Positions 34,932 through 45,848 of a DNA stretch of 64,000 nucleotides are shown here, piece after piece (position 1 is the stretch's first letter; every line of letters begins with the position of its first letter). A program made the translations under genes and the position numbers. The stretch lies in assembly GCF_000517125.1 (NCBI RefSeq), contig NZ_KI912155.1:2522696-2586695 (forward strand), read 5' to 3'. The stretch is from Arthrobacter sp. MA-N2 (GTDB lineage: Bacteria; Actinomycetota; Actinomycetes; Actinomycetales; Micrococcaceae). The notes beneath the pieces are model-generated. The model saw only the letters and a program-made list of their open reading frames with translations, was not told the origin of the DNA and made no database searches.

Positions 34932-37481
34932 GTGCGTATTCCACTTTCCTGGCTGCGTGAATTCGCGCAGGTTCCGGCCGACGCCACGGCTGAAGAGGTC
35001 ATGGCGGAACTCGTCAAGGTCGGTTTTGAAGAAGAAGCCGTCCACCGCCCGACGGATGCCCTCAAGGGTCCCATTGTGGTGGGTCAAGTCCTGAGCCTCG
35101 TCAAGGAGCCGCAGTCCAACGGCAAGACCATTAACTGGTGCCAGGTCCGCGTTGTTCCTGAAGGGCAAGAGCAGACCCTGACCGGCGAGGGCATCGACCC
35201 CTCCGGTGTGCAGGGCATCATTTGCGGTGCCCACAACTTCGTCGAGGGGGACAAAGTCGTGGTGACTCTCCCGGGAGCAGTGCTGCCGGGCGACTTCCAC
35301 ATCTCGGCTCGCAAAACCTACGGTCATTTGTCCGCAGGCATGATCGCCTCGGTACGTGAACTTGGCATCGGTGAGGACCACGACGGCATCCTGGTGCTCT
35401 CCCGCATCGGCCTGGATCCAGAGATCGGCACCGACGCCATGGCGCTGCTTGGCCTCTACGATGAAGCAGCCGAAATCAACGTCACTCCGGACCGTGGTTA
35501 CGCGTTCTCGATCCGTGGCGTCGCCCGCGAATATGCCCACGCCACCGGAACTGTCTTCACGGACCCAGCCGCCCGGGTCAACGCCCCGGCGGCACTCTCC
35601 GGTGGTTATGGCGTCAAGCTCAACGACGACGCCCCCATCTACGGCAATCCCGGGTGCGACCGCTTCGTGGCCCGCACGGTCCGCGGCGTGGACGCTACCC
35701 GCCCCACCCCGCCATGGATGGTTTCGCGACTGCGCTTGGCCGGCATCCGCTCGATTTCGCTCCCCGTGGACATCTCCAACTATGTGATGCTCGAACTCGG
35801 CCAGCCGAACCACTGCTACGATCTCGACAAGCTCTCGGGCGACATCGTGGTCCGCCGCGCCGTGGCCGGGGAGAAGATCACCACCCTCGACGGCAAAGTG
35901 CGTGCGCTCGACGTCGAAGATCTCCTGATTACCGACGGTTCCGGTGCCATCGGCATCGCTGGCGTGATGGGCGGGGCCAACACCGAGGTCTCCGCTTCGA
36001 CCACCAACGTCCTGGTCGAGGCTGCGCACTTCGATGAGGTTTCGATCGCCCGGTCCCGTCGCCGGCACAAGCTGCCGTCGGAGGCGTCCAAGCGTTTTGA
36101 GCGCGGCGTCGATTGGCAGGTTGCCCACATTGCGGCGCAGCGCGTCGTCGACCTCCTGGTTGAACTGGCGGGTGGAACGGCTGACGAAGCCGGGACCGAT
36201 GTCGGCACCGCCCCCGACGCACTGACCATCGAACTGCCGGCCGGCTACCCGGCCGCCCGGATCGGGATCGACTTCACGGAAGACCAGATCACGGGTTCCC
36301 TGAGGGACCTCGGTGCCATCGTGCTGAAGGACGAGGTGGGCGGCGCCTACGTGGTCACCGCACCGAGCTGGCGCAATGACCTGGAAACCAAGGAAGACCT
36401 CGCCGAGGAAATCGCAAGGCTGGTTGGCTACGACAACATCCCGGCCACGCTGCCCGTGGCACCTCCCGGCCGCGGCCTGACCCGGACCCAACAGCAGAAA
36501 CGCCGTGTGGTCCAGGCCCTGGCTGACGCAGGGCTGACCGAAGTCCTCTCCTATCCGTTCGTCTCCAAGTCAGCCAATGATGTTTTCGGTGTGGCCGAGG
36601 AAGGCGCGGCACGTACCGCCCTCAAACTGGCCAACCCGATCAGCGAGGAACACGGGTTCCTCCGCACTTCGGTGCTTCCTGGCCTGATAGAGGTTGCCCG
36701 CCGCAACCACTCCCGCGGTTTCCGCGACCTCGCCCTCTTCGAGGCAGGATCGGTGTTCCTTCCCGACGGTCAACTGGGCACTGCCTCCATCCCGCCGCTG
36801 GGTGTCAAGCCTTCCGCCGAGGTACTCGATGGACTGTACGACGGCGTCCCGGACCAGCCGCTGTACATCGCCGCCGTTTTGACCGGCCATGATTCCCCGG
36901 CTGCCGCGGAACACAAACCGCGCGCTTGGGACTGGGCCGACGCCCTTGATGTTGCCCGGCTCATCGGCGACGTCCTCGGCGTCGAGCTCGTGGTGAGCCA
37001 AGGCAGCCACCAGGCGTTCCACCCGGGCCGCGCCGCCCAGCTCGCGCTCCGTTCGGGTGACGTGGTGGGCTACGCCGGCGAATTGCACCCCAAACTGCTC
37101 GCCGCCCATGACATGCCGGCGCGTTCAGTGGCACTTGAGCTCAACGTGGACGCGATCTTCGACGCCGCCCCGGACGTCATTGTTGCCAAGCACATCTCCG
37201 GTTTCCCGGTGGCGACGCAGGACGTTGCCCTGGTGGTGCCGCAGGAGATCCCAGCGGACGCCGTACTGGCTGCCCTCCGGGAAGGCGCGGGCGAACTTCT
37301 CGAAGACGTCGCCTTGTTCGATGTCTACGCGGGCCAAGGTATCGAGGAGGGCAAGAAGTCGCTTGCTTTCGGGCTGCGCTTCCGTGCCATGGACCGCACC
37401 CTGACGGCCGATGAAGCGTCGGAGGCCCGCGAGGCCGCTGTCGCAGTCGCCGCGGAGCGATTCGGAGCAGTCCAGCGCTGA
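34932..37481 (+). CDS. pheT: phenylalanyl-tRNA synthetase beta subunit
   Basis: 849 residues, full length. The GTG start is followed directly by RIPLSWLREFAQV, the family N-terminus. Next come the EMAP/OB-like tRNA-binding domain (about 40-150), B3/B4 with the editing site (region of RSRRRHKLPSEASKRFERG), the B5 domain, the inactive synthetase core and the FDX-ACB anticodon domain at the end (FPVATQDVALVVP). The stop may overlap the start of the PPTase gene. Confidence 0.97.
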   Translation: MRIPLSWLREFAQVPADATAEEVMAELVKVGFEEEAVHRPTDALKGPIVVGQVLSLVKEPQSNGKTINWCQVRVVPEGQEQTLTGEGIDPSGVQGIICGAHNFVEGDKVVVTLPGAVLPGDFHISARKTYGHLSAGMIASVRELGIGEDHDGILVLSRIGLDPEIGTDAMALLGLYDEAAEINVTPDRGYAFSIRGVAREYAHATGTVFTDPAARVNAPAALSGGYGVKLNDDAPIYGNPGCDRFVARTVRGVDATRPTPPWMVSRLRLAGIRSISLPVDISNYVMLELGQPNHCYDLDKLSGDIVVRRAVAGEKITTLDGKVRALDVEDLLITDGSGAIGIAGVMGGANTEVSASTTNVLVEAAHFDEVSIARSRRRHKLPSEASKRFERGVDWQVAHIAAQRVVDLLVELAGGTADEAGTDVGTAPDALTIELPAGYPAARIGIDFTEDQITGSLRDLGAIVLKDEVGGAYVVTAPSWRNDLETKEDLAEEIARLVGYDNIPATLPVAPPGRGLTRTQQQKRRVVQALADAGLTEVLSYPFVSKSANDVFGVAEEGAARTALKLANPISEEHGFLRTSVLPGLIEVARRNHSRGFRDLALFEAGSVFLPDGQLGTASIPPLGVKPSAEVLDGLYDGVPDQPLYIAAVLTGHDSPAAAEHKPRAWDWADALDVARLIGDVLGVELVVSQGSHQAFHPGRAAQLALRSGDVVGYAGELHPKLLAAHDMPARSVALELNVDAIFDAAPDVIVAKHISGFPVATQDVALVVPQEIPADAVLAALREGAGELLEDVALFDVYAGQGIEEGKKSLAFGLRFRAMDRTLTADEASEAREAAVAVAAERFGAVQR

Positions 37482-37573
37482 CCAGTACCAACACCGGGAT
37501 CCAGGGGCTGGCTGTTCGCATCCAGTCCCTGGATCCTGCTGATTCCGCCGCCATCGAGCAGATCGCGGCGGAA

Positions 37574-38173
37574 TTGCTGTCTCCGGCCGAGACCCTTCGG
37601 GGCGACGCCATGTCCCCGGTCCTACGGCGGGAATTCCTGGCGTCCAGGGTGGCCCAGCAGAACTTTGCCGCAACGCTCCTGACGGTTCCCGCTTCGAAGC
37701 TCCACGCCGCCTATGAGTGCCCGGAGTGTGGCGCTGGTCCGGATATTGCTCATGGCCGGCCAGGATACCTGCTCGACGGCGGCCCCGCACCATTGCTGCT
37801 CAGCGCCTCGCGGGCGTCGGGCTGGGTGCTGTTTGCCGCCGTCGTGCATCCGGAACCCGGGCTCAGGCTGGGAGTTGATATGGAAAATGCTGCGGGCACC
37901 GAATTTGCCGGCTTCGACGACGTCGCCCTGACCGCACGCGAGCATCGCCATGTCGACGCGGTGGAACCGGGTCGCCGGGCGCACGAACGCGCTCGTTTGT
38001 GGGCGCGCAAGGAAGCTTGGTTGAAGATGACAGGCGAAGGGCTCCGGGTGAGCCCTGATTCTTTCGACGTGCTGGAAAGGCCGGGGCTGTGGGATCTTGA
38101 ACTCCCTGCCAGGGCTGACGGTCGGGATCTTCCGGCCGGACTGCTTGCCGCCCTCGCAGCAACCTCCCATTAG
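37574..38173 (+). CDS. Sfp-type 4'-phosphopantetheinyl transferase
   Basis: Transfers the phosphopantetheine arm from CoA to a serine of carrier proteins. From the TTG at 37574 it has 199 residues. The magnesium ligands are in GVDMEN (about residues 100-105, Asp 102 and Glu 104) and the W-x-x-K-E-A signature in RLWARKEAWLK (Glu 147). The frame is open and coding-like back to 37478, with no ATG, GTG or TTG. A CTG at 37478 overlapping the pheT stop may be the real start and would add 32 residues. The nearest carrier domain is in the Pls-type synthetase 1.5 kb away on the other strand, an obvious substrate. Confidence 0.82.
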   Translation: MLSPAETLRGDAMSPVLRREFLASRVAQQNFAATLLTVPASKLHAAYECPECGAGPDIAHGRPGYLLDGGPAPLLLSASRASGWVLFAAVVHPEPGLRLGVDMENAAGTEFAGFDDVALTAREHRHVDAVEPGRRAHERARLWARKEAWLKMTGEGLRVSPDSFDVLERPGLWDLELPARADGRDLPAGLLAALAATSH

Positions 38174-38203
38174 CTGAACTGCCTTGTACCAGCTGAAGGC
38201 TGA

Positions 38204-39628
38204 TCAGCTGAAAGCCGGGAGCCTCGCCCGATAAAGCCACGGCTCCAGTACACGTGCGGCGTCGAGTCCCGGAACGAAGGCGTTGGCCGTGGCGATGAAT
38301 TCAGCCGTGGACACCGAACTGTGGCGCTTGGTCTCGGTCCAATGCCGCAACAAGCCAAAGAACATGGCGTCACCGCACGCAAGCCGCACAGCGTGGAGGG
38401 CCAGTGCGCCGCGCTTGTAGACACGGTCATCGAACATCCGCTCCGGTCCGGGGTCGCCGATCACCAGGTCCTGGGCGCCGGCGTCGAGCTTGCGCCAGGC
38501 GGCCCTCGCACGGGTGGCGAGGGACATGACTCCGGTCTCTTCGGACCAGATCCATTCCGCATAGCAGGCGAAGCCCTCGTGCAGCCAGATATCACGCCAA
38601 CTGCTCACGGTCAGCGAATTGCCGAACCACTGGTGGGACAATTCGTGGGCGATGAGGCGTTGCGCCTCCCACGACTGTTCCATGTGGTTCCGGCCAAAGA
38701 TGGAGAGGGTCTGGGCCTCGAGGGGGATTTCCAGTTCGTCCTCGGTGACGACGGCGGTGTACTCCGCAAAAGGATACGGACCGAAACAGTCTTCGAAGGT
38801 GCGCATCATGTCGGCTTGCCGAGCCAGTCCTTCCCGGGCCTCGGTCAACAAGCCGGGCGCCACGGCGACGAATTGGGGCACCGGACTGTGCCGCGGGACC
38901 TCGGCATGATGTGCTGTTCCAAGGCCGGCCCGGGCGACGGAAGGGCTGAGCTGGTGGAGCTTGTATCGTCCGATCTGCACTGTGGCGAGATAGCTCGCCA
39001 TCGGCTCGGCCTGTTCATAGACCCAGGTCTCACGGCTCGATTTCTTGCTGTGCGATACGAGGCGGCCATTGCAGATGGCGCGGTAGTTGTCATCAGTGGT
39101 GATGCTGATCAAGTAGCTGGACTTGTACTGTGGGTGGTCGTTGCAGGGGAACCAGGACGCAGCGCCGTTCGGCTGCCCGGCAACCAGGACGCCGTCGTCG
39201 AGCTCTTCCCAGCCTACTTCGCCCCAGAGGCCCCTGCGCGGCTTGGGATTACCGTCGTAACGGAGTTCGACGGTGAATGATTGGCCTGCTGCCAGCGGTT
39301 CCTTGACGGTTATCACGAGGTGCTCGCCGCGCGGGCTGAACTTCGGGACCTTCTTGCCATCCACCAGGATCTTGGAAGCCTTCAGGCCCACCAGGTCCAG
39401 GATCAGCGAGTCCGTGTCCTCGAGTGCCACACAGCGAAGCACTGCGCGGCCGTTGAGCCGATTGCTACCCAGACTGTAGTCCAGGTCCAATTCATACCGC
39501 AACACCTGGAATGCCATGCTTCCGTGATGCAGGGCATAGGCATCGGCGGCAATTTTGGTTATTCCTGGTTCGCTAGGGCTCATATGCGCTGGCTGCCTCC
39601 GTGTAACTGGTTGTACTGGTGTGGTCAT
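38204..39628 (-). CDS. M1-family zinc aminopeptidase
   Basis: A 474-residue metallopeptidase. The zinc site is HELSH at residues 328-332 with the third ligand Glu 351, exactly HEXXH-X18-E. The N-terminal saddle and the catalytic domain are present, but the large C-terminal helical domain of PepN is missing. The usual GAMEN is replaced by an LEAQT-like stretch near 303. No signal peptide is seen, so it is cytosolic. It lies 34 bases downstream of the Pls-type synthetase on the same strand. M1 aminopeptidases that degrade epsilon-polylysine are reported from Streptomyces producers (recalled), which makes the pairing meaningful. It also has its own -10 box. Confidence 0.9.
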   Translation of the reverse strand: MTTPVQPVTRRQPAHMSPSEPGITKIAADAYALHHGSMAFQVLRYELDLDYSLGSNRLNGRAVLRCVALEDTDSLILDLVGLKASKILVDGKKVPKFSPRGEHLVITVKEPLAAGQSFTVELRYDGNPKPRRGLWGEVGWEELDDGVLVAGQPNGAASWFPCNDHPQYKSSYLISITTDDNYRAICNGRLVSHSKKSSRETWVYEQAEPMASYLATVQIGRYKLHQLSPSVARAGLGTAHHAEVPRHSPVPQFVAVAPGLLTEAREGLARQADMMRTFEDCFGPYPFAEYTAVVTEDELEIPLEAQTLSIFGRNHMEQSWEAQRLIAHELSHQWFGNSLTVSSWRDIWLHEGFACYAEWIWSEETGVMSLATRARAAWRKLDAGAQDLVIGDPGPERMFDDRVYKRGALALHAVRLACGDAMFFGLLRHWTETKRHSSVSTAEFIATANAFVPGLDAARVLEPWLYRARLPAFS

Positions 39629-39634
39629 GGCTGG

Positions 39635-39640
39635 TATTTA
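39635..39640 (-). promoter_or_regulatory. -10 box for the M1 aminopeptidase gene
   Basis: TAAATA on the minus strand ends 6 bases before the ATG; the overlapping TATAAA ends 8 bases before it. This lets the peptidase be made separately from the synthetase. Confidence 0.5.
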
Positions 39641-39662
39641 TAAGCCCGCTTGCTAATCTACG

Positions 39663-42600
39663 CTACGGTCCGGACCATGGGCTGACGGGGTTGCCCATCC
39701 AGTACGTACCGGCGGGAACAGTTTCACCTCGCATGACGAGCGACGCCGGCCCTACCGTTCCGCCTGCTCCGATGCTGGCGCGCGGCAGGATGACCCCGTG
39801 CGGTCCCATAGTGGCGCCGTCTCCGAGAACCACGGTATCGATGCTCATGATGCGGTCGTGGAAGAGGTGCGTCTGGACCACGCAGCCACGGTTGACCGTG
39901 GAACTTTCGCCAAGGGTGACGAGGTCGGCTTCGGGCAGCCAGTAGCTTTCGCACCAGGTACCCCGGCCGATTTTTGCGCCAAGCGCCCGGAGCCACCACA
40001 CCAACGCCGGTGTACCGGAAGCTGAACGCGCGAACCACGGGGCGCTGACCATCTCGATGAAGGTGTCCACCACCTCATTCCGCCAGATGAACGAGCTCCA
40101 CAGGGGGTGCTCGCCCGCCTTGATGCGGCCCACAAGGATCCATTTCGCGGCGACCGAACTAGCCGCGGCCAGGGCACCCGCGGCGAGGATAACGACGCCG
40201 CCCAGGACTGCCGCGAGCCAGTAGGAGGATTCCGAAGCAATCCAGTCAAGGACCCACATGATGCCGACGGCGATCGCCACCGTGAGGATGACCGGTACCA
40301 AGCGGCACAATTCCCACAGGGCCCGTTTGGTCTTGAGGGCCAGCGGCGGGTTGAAGGTGAGGCTCTGGTCGGCATCGACGACTGTCCGGCGCAGCCTGAC
40401 GGGCGGACTGCCCAGCCATGAGGTGCCGGATTTTGCCTTGGCAGGCGTTGCAGACAGCACCGCGACCAGTGAGTTCTTGGGGACGCTCCGGCCCGCGGCC
40501 GTCATGCCCGAATTACCGAGGAAGGAGCGTTTGCCGATCTTGGCGGGCCCGATCTTCATCCAACCACCGCCGAGCTCGTAGGAGGCCACCATGGTGTCGT
40601 CCGCGAGGAAGGCGCCTTCGCCGATTGTTGTCATGCGCGGCAGTAGAAGCACGGTGGAGGCTTCCACGTTGCGGCCGACTTTAGCCCCGAGGAGGCGCAG
40701 CCAAACAGGCGTGAACAGGCTGGCATAGATGGGGAAGAGCAGGTCCCGGGCCAGGTCCAGGACGCGTTCAGTTGCCCAGACCTGCCAACCCACCCGGCTG
40801 CGAACGCGGTAATACCCTTCCTTGAGGCCGATGCCGAGCATCCGCGTAGTGCCCAGGATGAGCAGGAGATTGCACAGGAACCAGGCGAGTGCGGCCAAAG
40901 GGATGGCGAGCAAGAGCTCCGGAAAGGCGTCCTGCAAGGAGTTCCTGCCCTGGATAAAGGCCACGACTACGCTGGCGCCGGCAAGTGCCGAGACGTAGGG
41001 GATCAGAGCCAGCAATGCCGAGGCCGTCGCGAACGCCGCGAACCAGAGCCGGCCAATCAGGTGGTGCGACGACGGCGTCTCCGGCCAATCATTCTTGGCT
41101 TTGCCACGGCGTTGGGCGGGGGACCCGGCAACGAGGTGTCCGGCTTTGACCTTGCCCAGGACGGCGGAACCAGGCTCCACCCGGGCACCGGCGCCAATGC
41201 TGGTTCCGGGCATGAGCGTACTGCGGGAGCCCACCGTTGCACCGGCACCCACATGGATGGCACCGATGTGGACGTAGTCGCCGTCGATCCACCAGGCGGA
41301 GAGATCCACTTCGGGTTCGATGTTGCAGCCGCTTCCCAGGGAAAGCAGCCCCGTGACCGGGGGCAAAGAGTGCAATTGGACGTTGTTCCCGATCTTCGCA
41401 CCCAGTGCCTTGGCGTAGTAGGGAACCCACGGCGCGCTGGCCAGGCTGATGGCACCCGAGAGGTCCTGGATCTGCTCGGCCAGCCACAACTTCAAGTGCA
41501 CTTTGCCCGAACGCGGGTAGGTACCGGCGTGGACACCACGCAGCAGAATGCGCGCAGCCAGAATCGATATGGCCATGCGGCCCGGCGGGCTGACGAACAC
41601 CAGCCAGGACGCCAGGATCCACCACCAGGACACCACCGGAGCCGCAGAGAATCCGGCGTAGTCCGCGAGCAGGCGATTGGCGGCCATGAGGTAGGTGAGC
41701 CAACGCATGCCCACCAGAATGTTGAGGAAGATGCCCATGAGGGTCTGGAAGATTTGAGATTTCCGGGAGGTCGGGCGAACGGTGCGTTCTGCCGGTGGAC
41801 CTTGGATACCGCCTTCGGGCAACGACTGCCGCGCTGCGTCGATCAGGGCACCCACCCGAGGGGTGGCGTAGACCTCCGCCACCGTGACGGTGGGGTAGCG
41901 CACGCGCAGGGCCGAGACGAGCTGGGCCGCAGCGAGGGAGCCGCCGCCATAGGCGAAGAAATCGGCGTCGAGCGAGGTGACGCTGGAGCCGAGGACGCTC
42001 TCCCATTGTTCAACCACCCATTGGGCGTCTTCGGGCAGGTTGAGCGGTGCCTTCTCCGCATCGGCGGCTCCTGCACCCGCCAACGGCCAGGGGAGGGAAT
42101 GCCTGTCAACTTTTCCACTGGTCTTTGTCGGGAGGGAATCGACCACCGTCAACAGGGGAATCAGCGCCGCCGGAAGGCTCTCGGTCAGTAGCACGCGCGA
42201 AGCCGTGAGGTCGATATCCTCGGGCCCGGCGGGCGCCAGGTAACCGACAAGCAGCTGGTTCCCGGCCGCCGTCGTACGGACTGCCGCGGCGGCCCCTGCG
42301 ACGCCCGGCAAGGCCTGCAGCGCGGCGTCGATCTCACCGAGTTCGATCCTCCGGCCGCCGAGCTTGACCTGCTCGTCCGCGCGGCCTTGGAAGATGAGGC
42401 CTGCTTTCTCGTAGCGGACCAGATCGCCGGAGCGGTACGCCCGTTCCCAGCCCAGGGATGGCATCGGGGCATACTTTTCGGCATCCTTGGCCGGATCGAG
42501 GTAGCGGGCCAGTCCGACGCCGCCAATGATCAGCTCGCCCGTCTCGCCTTCCGGGACGGGAACCCCGGCGGCGTCGACGACGGCGAGGTCCCAGCCGTCC

Positions 42601-43595
42601 AGGGGCAAGCCGATCCGGACGGGGCCGTCACCGCCGAGAGGGGCCGCGCAAGCGACCACCGTTGCTTCGGTGGGCCCATAGGTGTTCCACACTTCGCGGC
42701 CGTCCACCGCGAGTCGTTCGGCGAGCTCGGGCGGGCAGGCTTCGCCCCCGAAGATGAGCAGGCGCACGTTTTCAAGCGATTCTGCGGGCCACAAGGCTGC
42801 GAGCGTGGGAACGGTGGACACTACCGTGATGCCGTGGTTGATCAGCCACGGACCAAGGTCCATGCCGGAGCGCACCAGGGCACGCGGAGCGGGTACGAGG
42901 CAGGCGCCGTGCCGCCATGCCAGCCACATCTCTTCGCATGAGGCGTCGAAGGCTACCGAAAGGCCGGCCAAGACCCGGTCCTGTGGTCCGATGGGATCTT
43001 CCTGCAGGAAGAGCCGGGCTTCGGCGTCGACAAACGCGGCCGACGAGCGGTGCTGAACAGCGACGCCCTTGGGCGTGCCTGTGGAGCCGGAGGTGAAAAT
43101 GATCCAGGAATCGTCATCCAGGCCGGGTGCGCGGGGGGCAGGGTGCGGCGTGGGACGCTCCCCGGAAAGCTCAATCTTGCGGCCTTTTGTGATGACCGCA
43201 GTCACCTTGGCTTCCTTGAAAACGAGCCGTGCCCGCTCCTCGGGATCGTCTGCGTCTACAGGTACATAGGCGGCCGCGATCGAAAGGATTGCCAGGATGG
43301 CGATGTAGAGATCGTTGCTGCCGGACGGAATCCGCACGCCGATCGTGTCTCCGGGGCCAAGTCCCGCTGCATTGAGCGTGGCGGCAAAACCGCGCACCTG
43401 CGCCATGAGCTCGGAGTAACTGAGTGACTTGTGGCCGTCGTCGAGGGCAGATGCTTCCGGATAAGACCGTGCCGTGTCATCGATGATTTCGACGAGCGTC
43501 CGCGCGGGCGGCACGGCTGACGCGCCCTGCAGTTGAGGCAGGTGCACCGCTTGGAGTTCCAGGCGATCCGCCGGGATGTCATGTTCCTGGGTCAC
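39663..43595 (-). CDS. Pls/PosA-type nonribosomal peptide synthetase
   Basis: A 1310-residue membrane synthetase with the layout of epsilon-poly-L-lysine synthetase (1319 residues in Streptomyces albulus). Adenylation domain: about 30-500, with IIFTSGSTGTPKGV, NTYGPTE, YRSGDLVRY and TSGKVDR. Carrier domain: about 515-590, arm serine 553 in FAYGGGSL. Then three pairs of membrane segments (about 615-670, 845-915 and 1098-1150), each followed by a left-handed beta-helix domain with hexapeptide repeats. No condensation or thioesterase domain is present. Aligned to GrsA, the pocket reads D-A-E-S-I-G-T-V-V-K, close to the lysine code of bacitracin synthetase as I recall it. The GTG at 43595 is chosen; a TTG ten codons upstream is possible. 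Product inferred, not shown. Confidence 0.9.
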   Translation of the reverse strand: MTQEHDIPADRLELQAVHLPQLQGASAVPPARTLVEIIDDTARSYPEASALDDGHKSLSYSELMAQVRGFAATLNAAGLGPGDTIGVRIPSGSNDLYIAILAILSIAAAYVPVDADDPEERARLVFKEAKVTAVITKGRKIELSGERPTPHPAPRAPGLDDDSWIIFTSGSTGTPKGVAVQHRSSAAFVDAEARLFLQEDPIGPQDRVLAGLSVAFDASCEEMWLAWRHGACLVPAPRALVRSGMDLGPWLINHGITVVSTVPTLAALWPAESLENVRLLIFGGEACPPELAERLAVDGREVWNTYGPTEATVVACAAPLGGDGPVRIGLPLDGWDLAVVDAAGVPVPEGETGELIIGGVGLARYLDPAKDAEKYAPMPSLGWERAYRSGDLVRYEKAGLIFQGRADEQVKLGGRRIELGEIDAALQALPGVAGAAAAVRTTAAGNQLLVGYLAPAGPEDIDLTASRVLLTESLPAALIPLLTVVDSLPTKTSGKVDRHSLPWPLAGAGAADAEKAPLNLPEDAQWVVEQWESVLGSSVTSLDADFFAYGGGSLAAAQLVSALRVRYPTVTVAEVYATPRVGALIDAARQSLPEGGIQGPPAERTVRPTSRKSQIFQTLMGIFLNILVGMRWLTYLMAANRLLADYAGFSAAPVVSWWWILASWLVFVSPPGRMAISILAARILLRGVHAGTYPRSGKVHLKLWLAEQIQDLSGAISLASAPWVPYYAKALGAKIGNNVQLHSLPPVTGLLSLGSGCNIEPEVDLSAWWIDGDYVHIGAIHVGAGATVGSRSTLMPGTSIGAGARVEPGSAVLGKVKAGHLVAGSPAQRRGKAKNDWPETPSSHHLIGRLWFAAFATASALLALIPYVSALAGASVVVAFIQGRNSLQDAFPELLLAIPLAALAWFLCNLLLILGTTRMLGIGLKEGYYRVRSRVGWQVWATERVLDLARDLLFPIYASLFTPVWLRLLGAKVGRNVEASTVLLLPRMTTIGEGAFLADDTMVASYELGGGWMKIGPAKIGKRSFLGNSGMTAAGRSVPKNSLVAVLSATPAKAKSGTSWLGSPPVRLRRTVVDADQSLTFNPPLALKTKRALWELCRLVPVILTVAIAVGIMWVLDWIASESSYWLAAVLGGVVILAAGALAAASSVAAKWILVGRIKAGEHPLWSSFIWRNEVVDTFIEMVSAPWFARSASGTPALVWWLRALGAKIGRGTWCESYWLPEADLVTLGESSTVNRGCVVQTHLFHDRIMSIDTVVLGDGATMGPHGVILPRASIGAGGTVGPASLVMRGETVPAGTYWMGNPVSPWSGP

Positions 43596-43658: not shown

Positions 43659-44624
43659 CTACGGGATCAACAGTAGCTTGCCCGTCGTCTGGCGGCCTTC
43701 GAGGTCGCGGTGGGCCTGCGCGGCTTCGGCGAGCGGGTAGGTTCCGCCAATCCGGACTTTGAGCGCGCCGCTGGCTGCAGCGCCGAAGACTTCGGCCGAA
43801 CGCCAGCGCCGCTCCTGCGGGTTCTGCAGGAAGTGGGCGAGGGTGGGGCGGGTGAGGGACAACGATCCGCCGGCGTTCAGCCGCTGGGGATCGAAGGGAG
43901 GCACAGGCCCGGAGGCCGCCCCGAAAAGGACGAGCGAGCCACGGATGCGCAGGCTAGCAAGCGAATCGTCGAAAGTGTCCTTGCCGACACCGTCGTACAC
44001 GACGTGGACCCCTTCGCCGTTGGTCAGTTCACGGACTTTGTCGGCGAATCCGGCGTAACGCAGGACCTCATCCGCGCCGGCCTGCCGAGCCAGGACTTCC
44101 TTCTGGTCCGAAGAGACAGTGGTGATGACACGGGCGCCGCGCTCCTTGAGCAATTGGGTCAGGATGAGACCCACCCCGCCAGCACCGGCGTGGGTCAGGA
44201 CAGTGTGTCCCGGCTCCACCCGGAACGAGGAATTGATCAGGTAGTGGGCGGTCATTCCCTGCAGCGGAAGGGCGGCTGCAGTGTGGTCGTCGACGCCGTC
44301 CGGAACCGGAAGGGCCTTGTCCGCATCAACCAGGGTGTAACCCGCATAGCTGCGGGATCCTTCAGCGGTAGCGACCCTGTCCCCGACGGCGAAGTCCTCA
44401 ACGCCTGCACCGATGGCCTCCACGGTGCCTGCCGCCTCGGAGCCCGGGGTGAGCGGATACTCAACCTTGTAGATGCCGCTGCGTTGGTAGGTGTCAATGA
44501 AGTTCACTCCCGCGGCTGCAACTTTGACGAGGAGCTGGCGCGGACCAGGGGCCGGAACCTCTGCTTCGGTGAGTTCGAGGACTTCGGGTCCTCCGGCTTG
44601 CCGGGCAATGATCGCACGCGTCAT
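43659..44624 (-). CDS. NADPH:quinone oxidoreductase, zeta-crystallin type
   Basis: A 321-residue medium-chain dehydrogenase/reductase without zinc ligands. VAAAGVNFIDTYQRSGIY is the quinone reductase signature. The NADPH-binding loop is THAGAGGVGLILTQL, and the C-terminus TTGKLLLIP is typical. It reduces quinones by one electron or acts on enones. The ATG at 44624 follows AAGGAG. It is 63 bases upstream of the synthetase gene on the same strand and could be co-transcribed with it. Confidence 0.9.
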   Translation of the reverse strand: MTRAIIARQAGGPEVLELTEAEVPAPGPRQLLVKVAAAGVNFIDTYQRSGIYKVEYPLTPGSEAAGTVEAIGAGVEDFAVGDRVATAEGSRSYAGYTLVDADKALPVPDGVDDHTAAALPLQGMTAHYLINSSFRVEPGHTVLTHAGAGGVGLILTQLLKERGARVITTVSSDQKEVLARQAGADEVLRYAGFADKVRELTNGEGVHVVYDGVGKDTFDDSLASLRIRGSLVLFGAASGPVPPFDPQRLNAGGSLSLTRPTLAHFLQNPQERRWRSAEVFGAAASGALKVRIGGTYPLAEAAQAHRDLEGRQTTGKLLLIP

Positions 44625-44759
44625 GGTTCTCCTTCTCCGTCGAGGCACTTTCGTGCCCGCATTCACACAACCATCCTAGGGAACGGAGTCCGCCGAGTGT
44701 CCAGTCAGCGGCTGAGGGCCGTGGTTCGCCGTGATGTGCCCGGTGGTCTTCGGTGCGTG

Positions 44760-45848
44760 TCAGCCTCTACCGTGCGCGGAAGCAACAGGGCAGTCAAAGC
44801 CGCGGCCGGCGGCGAGTCCTACCTCATTGAGGTAGCGCACGACGATTGCGTACGACTGCATCAACGTGGTTTCGGTGTAGGCAATGGAGTGCTTTTCGCA
44901 GTAGCTTCGAACGATCTCCGAGGCGCGGCGCAAATGGGGGCGTGCCATGTCGGGGAAAAGGTGGTGTTCCGCCTGGTGGTTGAGGCCGCCCAGGAGGATA
45001 TTCATGAAGGGGCCGCCGGAGATGTTCCTGGCAGTCAGAACCTGGCGACGCAGGAAATCGACGCGCGAGTCGGTCGGCAGGACCGGCATGCCCTTGTGGT
45101 TCGGGGCGAAGGAAGCCCCCATGTAGAAGCCGAACACCATGATCTGGACGCCCAGGAAGGCAAATGCCATGCCAAGCGGCAGGAAGGTGAAGGCGAGGAC
45201 CGGCAGCGCGAGAAGGCGCGCCAGGAGGATGGGGGTCTCTACCCAGCGGTGCTTGATGGCTCCGGGCCGCAGGATGTACATCAAGGACTCCCACTGCAGG
45301 CTGATGCCCAGCAGCATCAGGAGCGGGAAGAAGAACCAGCCCTGCCTACGGGTGAGGAACGCGAAGCGTCCGTTCCTTCCGGCAGCGGCTTCAACGTGGA
45401 ACGCCAGGGCTCCGGTCTTGATGTCCGGGTCCTTGGAAATCACGTTCGGGTTGTTGTGGTGTGCGCCGTGCTTCTGTTCCCACCAGGAGTAACTGATGCC
45501 GGCAACCGAAGTGGCCAGGATGCGCGCAGACCAGTCATTGGCCCGGCGGGAGGCAAAAATCTGGCGGTGGCCGGCCTCGTGGGCCAGGAAGCTCAATTGG
45601 GTGCAGAGAATGCCGAGGGCCGCTGCGATGAGGAGTTGGTACCAGCTGTGCCCGATGAGGGCGAAGCCGAACCAAGTGCCGGTCAACAAGAGGACCAATG
45701 CCGCGAAGACGCTGACGTAAAAGCCGACGCGACGCTTCAAGAGCCCTTCCGCGCGGACTGTCTTAAGGAGTTCGGAATAGCTCAGCACGACGGCGTTGGG
45801 TTGCCGGACGCTCTTGGCGGGAAGTTCCGTGGTGGACGTCGGTGACAT
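44760..45848 (-). CDS. acyl-lipid fatty acid desaturase
   Basis: A 362-residue membrane di-iron desaturase. All three histidine boxes are present: HEAGH, HGAHH and HQAEHH, the last of the front-end/delta-type form. Four or more membrane segments surround them. Such enzymes adjust membrane fluidity, often in the cold. The ATG at 45848 is chosen because the upstream extension is basic and unlike the family. It is divergent from the arg operon. The 135-base gap to the oxidoreductase gene shows nothing notable. Confidence 0.9.
   Translation of the reverse strand: MSPTSTTELPAKSVRQPNAVVLSYSELLKTVRAEGLLKRRVGFYVSVFAALVLLLTGTWFGFALIGHSWYQLLIAAALGILCTQLSFLAHEAGHRQIFASRRANDWSARILATSVAGISYSWWEQKHGAHHNNPNVISKDPDIKTGALAFHVEAAAGRNGRFAFLTRRQGWFFFPLLMLLGISLQWESLMYILRPGAIKHRWVETPILLARLLALPVLAFTFLPLGMAFAFLGVQIMVFGFYMGASFAPNHKGMPVLPTDSRVDFLRRQVLTARNISGGPFMNILLGGLNHQAEHHLFPDMARPHLRRASEIVRSYCEKHSIAYTETTLMQSYAIVVRYLNEVGLAAGRGFDCPVASAHGRG

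What the first reader, a model, noticed from the sequence alone, without database searches (positions are those of the whole stretch)
37478..43595. Candidate polyamine-peptide system: Pls-type synthetase, M1 aminopeptidase and Sfp-type transferase
Sequence: a 1310-residue A-T-(2TM-beta helix)x3 synthetase, an M1 zinc aminopeptidase 34 bases downstream on the same strand, and a phosphopantetheinyl transferase gene facing them. Knowledge: this layout is that of epsilon-poly-L-lysine synthetase, which polymerises one amino acid without condensation or thioesterase domains. Inference: a synthesis, activation and trimming cassette for a homopolymer in a genus not noted for it. The peptidase could limit chain length or protect the host.
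Basis: partly seen in the sequence, partly recalled or inferred. Interest (0 to 1): 0.75.

Follow-up and report, generated by a model that had tools for sequence, protein, structure and literature searches.

The report
Epsilon-polylysine synthetase operon in Arthrobacter-like genome
This bacterium carries an intact, known kind of gene set for making the antimicrobial polymer epsilon-polylysine, with the usual neighbouring peptidase and an adjacent activating enzyme; what is added here is that in its family the set usually sits at one fixed place in the chromosome.

Summary
In detail: a 1310-residue A-T-(2TM + beta-helix)x3 synthetase, an M1 peptidase 34 bases downstream, and a phosphopantetheinyl transferase (PPTase) facing them. 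The synthetase is a lysine-type Pls: its A domain matches the solved epsilon-polylysine synthase A domain, with the same ten-residue code (DAESIGTVVK). The M1 gene is the known pls-pldII partner, and Pls homologues in Arthrobacter are already in print (PMC8117764), so "a genus not noted for it" is outdated. Added here: of 149 family genomes, 69 have this Pls clade; all 69 have the M1 gene next to it, and 65 lie between pheT and argC. Of 14 sites read in genomes without it, ten show no trace, three keep the PPTase and one a broken pls remnant: an old trait with repeated losses. A PPTase lay near pls in 35 of 41 family loci profiled, but in 2 of 73 named loci from other families. The M1 protein lacks the RR leader seen in 6 of 11 Streptomyces copies and is read as cytosolic. 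The same genome carries a second synthetase cluster, of poly-diaminobutyrate layout. Production is untested.

The parts
39663..43595 (-). pls: epsilon-poly-L-lysine synthetase of Pls type, 1310 aa, GTG start
42075..43520 (-). adenylation domain, residues 26-507, specificity code DAESIGTVVK
   Evidence: alignment to 7wew (E 4e-194); code (positions placed from recall)
41835..42023 (-). thiolation (carrier) domain, residues 525-587, with the phosphopantetheine serine in GGGS
   Evidence: PF00550; serine in 137 of 138 aligned proteins, 1 gap
39666..41786 (-). C-terminal half, residues 604-1310: three units of two transmembrane helices plus left-handed beta-helix
   Evidence: TIGR02353; hydropathy; AlphaFold model; Foldseek to hexapeptide acyltransferases
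38204..39628 (-). M1 zinc peptidase, positional and sequence counterpart of PldII, 474 aa, no leader peptide seen
37478..38173 (+). Sfp-type phosphopantetheinyl transferase facing the operon; start codon unresolved (CTG 37478, TTG 37574 or another between)
43659..44666 (-). quinone oxidoreductase-like gene 63 bases upstream on the same strand; also at the pheT-argC site where pls is absent, so context rather than part

Best explanation
The locus is a complete Pls/PldII-type module for epsilon-poly-L-lysine. The PPTase loads phosphopantetheine onto the T domain. The A domain activates L-lysine as the adenylate and loads it on the T domain. The membrane-embedded triple beta-helix half joins the lysine carboxyl to the epsilon-amino group of the next and lets the chain go without condensation or thioesterase domains. 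The M1 peptidase hydrolyses polymer that is in the wrong place; as no leader is seen, it most likely acts in the cytosol as self-protection and recycling. Shown here: domain make-up, code, operon, family-wide linkage, synteny, no leader by hydropathy. From the literature on Streptomyces and Corynebacterium Pls: the reaction. Inferred: that this strain makes the polymer, that this PPTase is the activator, and what the peptidase is for.
For: A domain to 7wew epsilon-poly-L-lysine synthase E 4e-194 over 482 residues. Code DAESIGTVVK in 121 of 138 aligned Pls-type proteins, window and Streptomyces Pls among them; 12 more differ only at the ninth position (V to I); the second synthetase of the same genome, beside a diaminobutyrate transaminase, has DFECLSVVTK. 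In a tree of 134 the window lies in the group of 130 (support 0.971) apart from L150, L151, L152 and L154. M1 same strand downstream in 69 of 69 clade I family genomes (68 within 400 bases; the 69th, broken G144, counts 444 only because I took the larger of its two pls pieces) and in 69 of the 76 named loci with room for it (80 loci, 4 end too early). The M1 subfamily is in 75 of 79 family genomes with a Pls of either clade and in 0 of 70 without. The Corynebacterium homologue made epsilon-polylysine in Streptomyces coelicolor (PMC8117764).
Against: No product has been shown; C. variabile made none in its own host (PMC8117764), so this gene may be silent too. The window Pls is only 50-53% identical to the S. 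albulus-like group L037-L045, and a similar diamine cannot be excluded by the code alone. Seven of the 76 named loci with room lack the M1 gene: four Kitasatospora loci, Kocuria polaris and two Streptomyces. The M1 enzyme is 41-44% identical to its S. albulus-like counterparts and lacks the RR leader of six of them, so its place of action may differ. A PPTase hit within 15 kb was found in only 53 of 69 clade I genomes; a profile found one in 35 of 41 fetched loci.
Confidence: 0.88

Rival explanations
1. A Pls-type synthetase for another cationic amino acid (diaminobutyrate, diaminopropionate or ornithine).
For: The Pls/PosA model also rings for the second synthetase of this genome, which sits beside a diaminobutyrate transaminase and an aspartate kinase.
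Against: Code identical to Pls and different from the second synthetase; peptidase context instead of dat/ask; A domain nearest to epsilon-polylysine synthase.
Confidence: 0.07
2. The M1 peptidase is a housekeeping aminopeptidase that is next to pls only because the site is inherited as a block.
For: Much of the linkage in the family is at one inherited site; M1 and PheT distances correlate at 0.81 in 30 loci.
Against: The pair is together in Streptomyces, Nocardia, Mycobacterium, Rhodococcus and Amycolatopsis loci without pheT or argC in the stretch fetched (up to 10 kb each side); in G079 and G099 the cassette is away from the pheT-argC site with its order kept; M1 of this subfamily is in 0 of 70 family genomes without a Pls of either clade.
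Confidence: 0.05
3. The PPTase is a general activator that merely lies at this site and has no special tie to pls.
For: It is the only PF01648 gene of Sfp size and the genome has another carrier-bearing synthetase elsewhere. PPTase alone stays at the site in G122, G007 and G109, which have no pls or M1 there. PPTase hits also occur in 16 of 70 genomes without pls, against 59 of 79 with it.
Against: PPTase stays beside pls when the cassette is elsewhere (G079, G099) or lies on the other side of pls (G022, G050, G074, G126), and is beside pls in Humibacillus and Brachybacterium. It can be both: activator of Pls and of the others.
Confidence: 0.3

Closest known systems
Streptomyces albulus pls-pldII operon (epsilon-polylysine synthetase and degrading enzyme II)
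   Same: domain order, code, M1 peptidase directly downstream on the same strand (PMC4361855 passage: 4-base overlap, one operon)
   Different: 34-base gap instead of overlap; M1 without the RR leader of the S. albulus-like L037 copy; PPTase in cis; 52% identity to the L037 Pls
Corynebacterium variabile pls-peptidase operon and coryneform Pls homologues incl. Arthrobacter (Jiang et al. 2021, PMC8117764)
   Same: same kind, same operon, related actinobacterial hosts; the C. variabile Pls made epsilon-polylysine in Streptomyces coelicolor
   Different: the half of the paper read here and a term search of its main text show no PPTase neighbour, and I saw no chromosomal synteny in what I read; the C. 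variabile sequence itself was not compared here
gamma-poly-diaminobutanoate synthetase cluster (pldA, dat, ask, named in the legend of PMC8117764 Fig. 1)
   Same: same Pls/PosA architecture; this layout is present elsewhere in the same genome
   Different: that second synthetase has a different code (DFECLSVVTK) and precursor genes instead of a peptidase
Zinc metalloprotease 6a8z / 6iff (closest solved M1 relative; source organism Deinococcus radiodurans from recall)
   Same: same two-domain length, E 1e-47
   Different: no link to a polymer synthetase was looked for

Membership tests
epsilon-poly-L-lysine synthetase (Pls) | A-T followed by three tandem (2TM + acyltransferase-like beta-helix) units, no condensation or thioesterase domain | tested here: met
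   no condensation or thioesterase family among the three Pfam hits
epsilon-poly-L-lysine synthetase (Pls) | A domain nearest to Pls and same ten-residue pocket | tested here: met
   7wew, 649 bits; the only hit at E 1e-105 or better; code identical
epsilon-poly-L-lysine synthetase (Pls) | groups with Pls and not with the diaminobutyrate/diaminopropionate synthetases | tested here: met
   134 proteins; the outgroup L150, L151, L152, L154 was assigned by code (L152 also by gene context), not from proven synthetases
epsilon-poly-L-lysine synthetase (Pls) | makes a 25-35 residue lysine isopeptide | not testable with these tools
   needs expression and mass spectrometry
[quoted passage not shown]
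[quoted passage not shown]
   no leader or hydrophobic N-terminus in the window protein; RR leader found by rule in 5 of 114 M1 proteins, all Streptomyces, and by eye in L037. Hydropathy only, no trained predictor. So the counterpart claim rests on position and homology; I do not file it as a proven PldII
[quoted passage not shown]
   needs enzyme assay
Sfp-type phosphopantetheinyl transferase | PF01648 domain at Sfp size with the transferase motifs | tested here: met
   PF01648 43.4 bits over 25; GVDME and WARKEAWLK read in the sequence (that these are the motifs is recalled); TIGR00556 below its cut-off
gamma-poly-diaminobutanoate cluster (second locus L152) | Pls/PosA synthetase with diaminobutyrate transaminase and aspartate kinase | tested here: met
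   (dat family 429 bits over 401.6; aspartate kinase 362 bits over 208.7); substrate not tested

The most novel reading that the evidence does not exclude
In Micrococcaceae the epsilon-polylysine module is an old family trait fixed between pheT and argC. It usually carries its own PPTase and a cytosolic antidote peptidase, where part of Streptomyces uses an exported one; and in this strain the one PPTase also serves a second, poly-diaminobutyrate-type cluster, so one cell could make two polycations.
Probability: 0.55. Interest if true: 0.42.

Novelty: new member of a known kind. Interest (0 to 1): 0.3.

Why it matters
The biological role of these polycations is described as unclear (PMC9606270, passage of the abstract). 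A gene set kept at one site through much of a family of bacteria, with relatives that have the same site without it, gives natural comparisons for testing what the polymer does. The leader difference gives a testable split between an exported and a cytosolic peptidase. For production, it points to many non-filamentous hosts, most with a likely activator gene beside pls.

Tried and rejected
The idea that the layout is new to the genus was rejected on PMC8117764 and PMC11078813. Recent horizontal arrival in the family was rejected: same site in 65 of 69; Pls distances correlate with PheT at 0.89 (30 loci) and with ArgC at 0.76 (34 loci), 0 of 999 permutations as high in either; GC of pls 0.658 against 0.647 for pheST. 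Permutation ignores relatedness within genera, so it shows shared history, not its cause. A look by eye at the alignment around the M1 exopeptidase motif gave nothing I could tie to isopeptides. The fold search on the C-terminal half gave generic hexapeptide acyltransferases at low whole-chain TM, 0.16 at best among the 50 rows shown. Clade II (18 matches, 45-55% identity) was followed only in part: codes were read for 14 of the 18 (DAESIGTVVK in 3, DAESIGTVIK in 11), only G036 has an adjacent M1, and in the tree G036 (L135) lies outside the other clade II loci.

Rows dropped or merged: the clade counts use near-full-length matches, the partial gene G067 at a contig edge included; short matches over 59% identity in G001 (72%), G055 (62%) and the second piece in G144 (86%) were left out, as were all matches under 45%. 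M1 matches in two pieces were merged (G034, G067, G082, G102, G119, G133, G144 and the distant ones), and second pieces of some PPTase matches were merged or left out. The tree left out L042, L067, L084 and L091; the code count kept all 138, of which L042 is a gap. In one search the script missed the M1 gene of L081, which one search shows. The rule missed the RR leader of L037, seen; of the other five Streptomyces copies not flagged I looked by eye at two, L041 not among the printed-as-clear ones being left undecided: in fact one search printed only L061 of them, with no such leader. For codes, PPTase profile and distances I used 41 loci: the window and 39 further clade I loci of 69 genomes, plus L135 (G036).
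Full report
What is there. The synthetase (39663-43595, minus) has 1310 residues with an adenylation and a carrier domain followed by the TIGR02353 'Pls/PosA' region; that model scores 702 bits against a cut-off of 423. Hydropathy of the C-terminal half shows three pairs of hydrophobic segments (about residues 615-668, 847-913, 1099-1145) and one weak extra one at 952-970. An AlphaFold model of residues 604-1310 from an alignment of 36 sequences is confident (pLDDT 88.7, pTM 0.89) and shows long helices followed by a beta-helix three times. Its best solved matches are hexapeptide acyltransferases. The M1 gene starts 34 bases after the synthetase stop. The PPTase faces them, ending 30 bases from the end of the M1 gene; its start codon is unresolved.

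Substrate. Against solved structures the A domain has one outstanding match, 7wew, the epsilon-poly-L-lysine synthase A domain, 649 bits over 482 residues. The ten-residue pocket, placed by me from recalled positions, reads DAESIGTVVK in the window and in 121 of 138 aligned Pls-type proteins, the Streptomyces group around L037 among them (L037 is 93% identical to 7wew in the A domain). Twelve have DAESIGTVIK, three DFECLSVVTK, one DGESVSVVNK and one is a gap. In a tree of 134 the window falls in a clade of 46 loci (support 0.979): the 40 fetched clade I loci and six named Arthrobacter, Pseudarthrobacter and Micrococcus loci. A group of 130 that holds this clade, the Streptomyces Pls and clade II stands apart (0.971) from L150, L151, L152 and L154.

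The peptidase. In the family search, 88 of 149 genomes match the synthetase at E 1e-50 or better; that count includes ordinary NRPS genes. Taking near-full-length matches of 59% identity or more (one partial gene at a contig edge included), 69 genomes have this clade, and all 69 have the M1 gene downstream on the same strand: 68 within 400 bases, and the broken copy in G144 at 444, a figure that comes from using the larger of its two pls pieces. A second clade of 18 (45-55% identity) has it adjacent once and at 3.4-4 kb four times. Counting both clades, the M1 subfamily is in 75 of 79 genomes with a Pls and in 0 of 70 without; in G005 the two are on different contigs. Among 80 named loci, 69 show the M1 gene after pls, four end too soon to tell, and seven lack it, four of them Kitasatospora. 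This is the known pls-pldII operon (PMC8117764, half of the text read; PMC9223678 and PMC4361855, passages). HEXXH and the distal glutamate are in the consensus of 114 aligned M1 proteins. An RR leader was found by rule in five Streptomyces copies and by eye in L037, so in 6 of the 11 Streptomyces loci that have the M1 gene; by that rule it is in no other of the 114, the window included. I read the window enzyme as cytosolic. This rests on hydropathy, not on a trained predictor.

The PPTase. It is one of two PF01648 genes found in the genome; the other is a 118-residue open frame, of AcpS size. A hit within 15 kb of pls occurs in 53 of 69 clade I genomes, 49 of them facing the operon from downstream. 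With a profile built from family members it is found in 35 of 41 fetched family loci, and in 7 of 80 named loci: five of the seven Micrococcaceae ones, and Humibacillus and Brachybacterium out of the other 73 (family membership of named loci from recall). Diverged PPTases, or ones beyond the fetched stretch, could be missed. In genus g31 (G079, G099) the cassette lies away from pheT-argC with its order kept, and in four genomes of genus g22 the PPTase is on the other side of pls yet next to it. Against an exclusive tie, the PPTase stays alone at the site in G122, G007 and G109, and PPTase hits occur in 16 of 70 genomes without pls against 59 of 79 with it.

The site. In 65 of 69 genomes pls lies between pheT and argC, as in the window; two are elsewhere in the genome and two cannot be placed because of contig breaks or a missing argC. 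Of 80 genomes without the clade, 74 have pheT and argC on one contig; the gap is 1-3 kb in 49, under 100 bases in 2 and 3.1-21.7 kb in 23, and most of these larger gaps were not read. Fifteen sites chosen by me were read, one of them (G099) the vacated site of a cassette that lies elsewhere: fourteen show pheT, the quinone oxidoreductase and argC, one (G132) lacks the oxidoreductase; three keep the PPTase, and G001 keeps a broken pls remnant. Together with the distance correlations (Pls with PheT 0.89 in 30 loci, with ArgC 0.76 in 34) this points to old presence and repeated loss. In the wider class, 63 of 296 genomes have a match at E 1e-200 or better, so the kind is common among actinobacteria.

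Same genome. About 0.95 Mb away lies a second Pls/PosA synthetase (1375 residues, TIGR02353 687 bits) preceded on the same strand by a diaminobutyrate transaminase and an aspartate kinase, the genes named for the gamma-poly-diaminobutanoate clusters in the Fig. 1 legend of PMC8117764. The genome may thus encode two polycations served by one PPTase.

Known or new. Pls homologues in Arthrobacter and the operon are in print (PMC8117764), and NAPAA clusters in Micrococcaceae too (PMC11078813, passages). In six searches of the paper library I saw no report of the cis PPTase or of the pheT-argC site. Most of their hits I saw only as listings. One search, the one that named the PPTase, listed four papers, of which I looked at passages in PMC4361855 and PMC8949500. 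Most subscription papers are not held. I therefore file it as a new member of a known kind, with modest added interest for the fixed site, the cis activator, the missing leader and the second cluster.

Noticed in passing
L152 7519-14675 (own genome G000:C1, about 3.515-3.523 Mb, outside the window): Second Pls/PosA synthetase (1375 aa, code DFECLSVVTK) with diaminobutyrate transaminase and aspartate kinase upstream on the same strand: layout of a gamma-poly-diaminobutanoate cluster.
   Followed up: partly
L186 3263-4011 (G001): Broken pls remnant (49% and 72% identity pieces) between QOR/argC and pheT, evidence of loss at the site.
   Followed up: partly
G144:C1:641988-647322: pls match with two stops and the M1 match in two pieces at the usual site: a decaying copy.
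   Followed up: no
G122, G007, G109 (L183, L184, L185): PPTase present at the pheT-argC site without pls or M1.
   Followed up: partly
18 family matches, 13 of them in L137-L149: A second Pls clade (45-55% identity) with the lysine code or one change from it where read, in 8 genomes together with the first clade, mostly without an adjacent M1; distant M1 frames of 722 and 736 residues lie about 9 kb away in G085 and G136.
   Followed up: partly
window 44760-45845 (-): Fatty acid desaturase gene between the quinone oxidoreductase and argC; matched in five loci of the same genus (L117, L118, L157, L158, L159) and in L109, in no other fetched locus listed.
   Followed up: no
L046, L047, L049, L062 (Kitasatospora): pls loci of a genus named as a producer in PMC8117764, yet with no M1 match downstream in the stretch fetched.
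   Followed up: no
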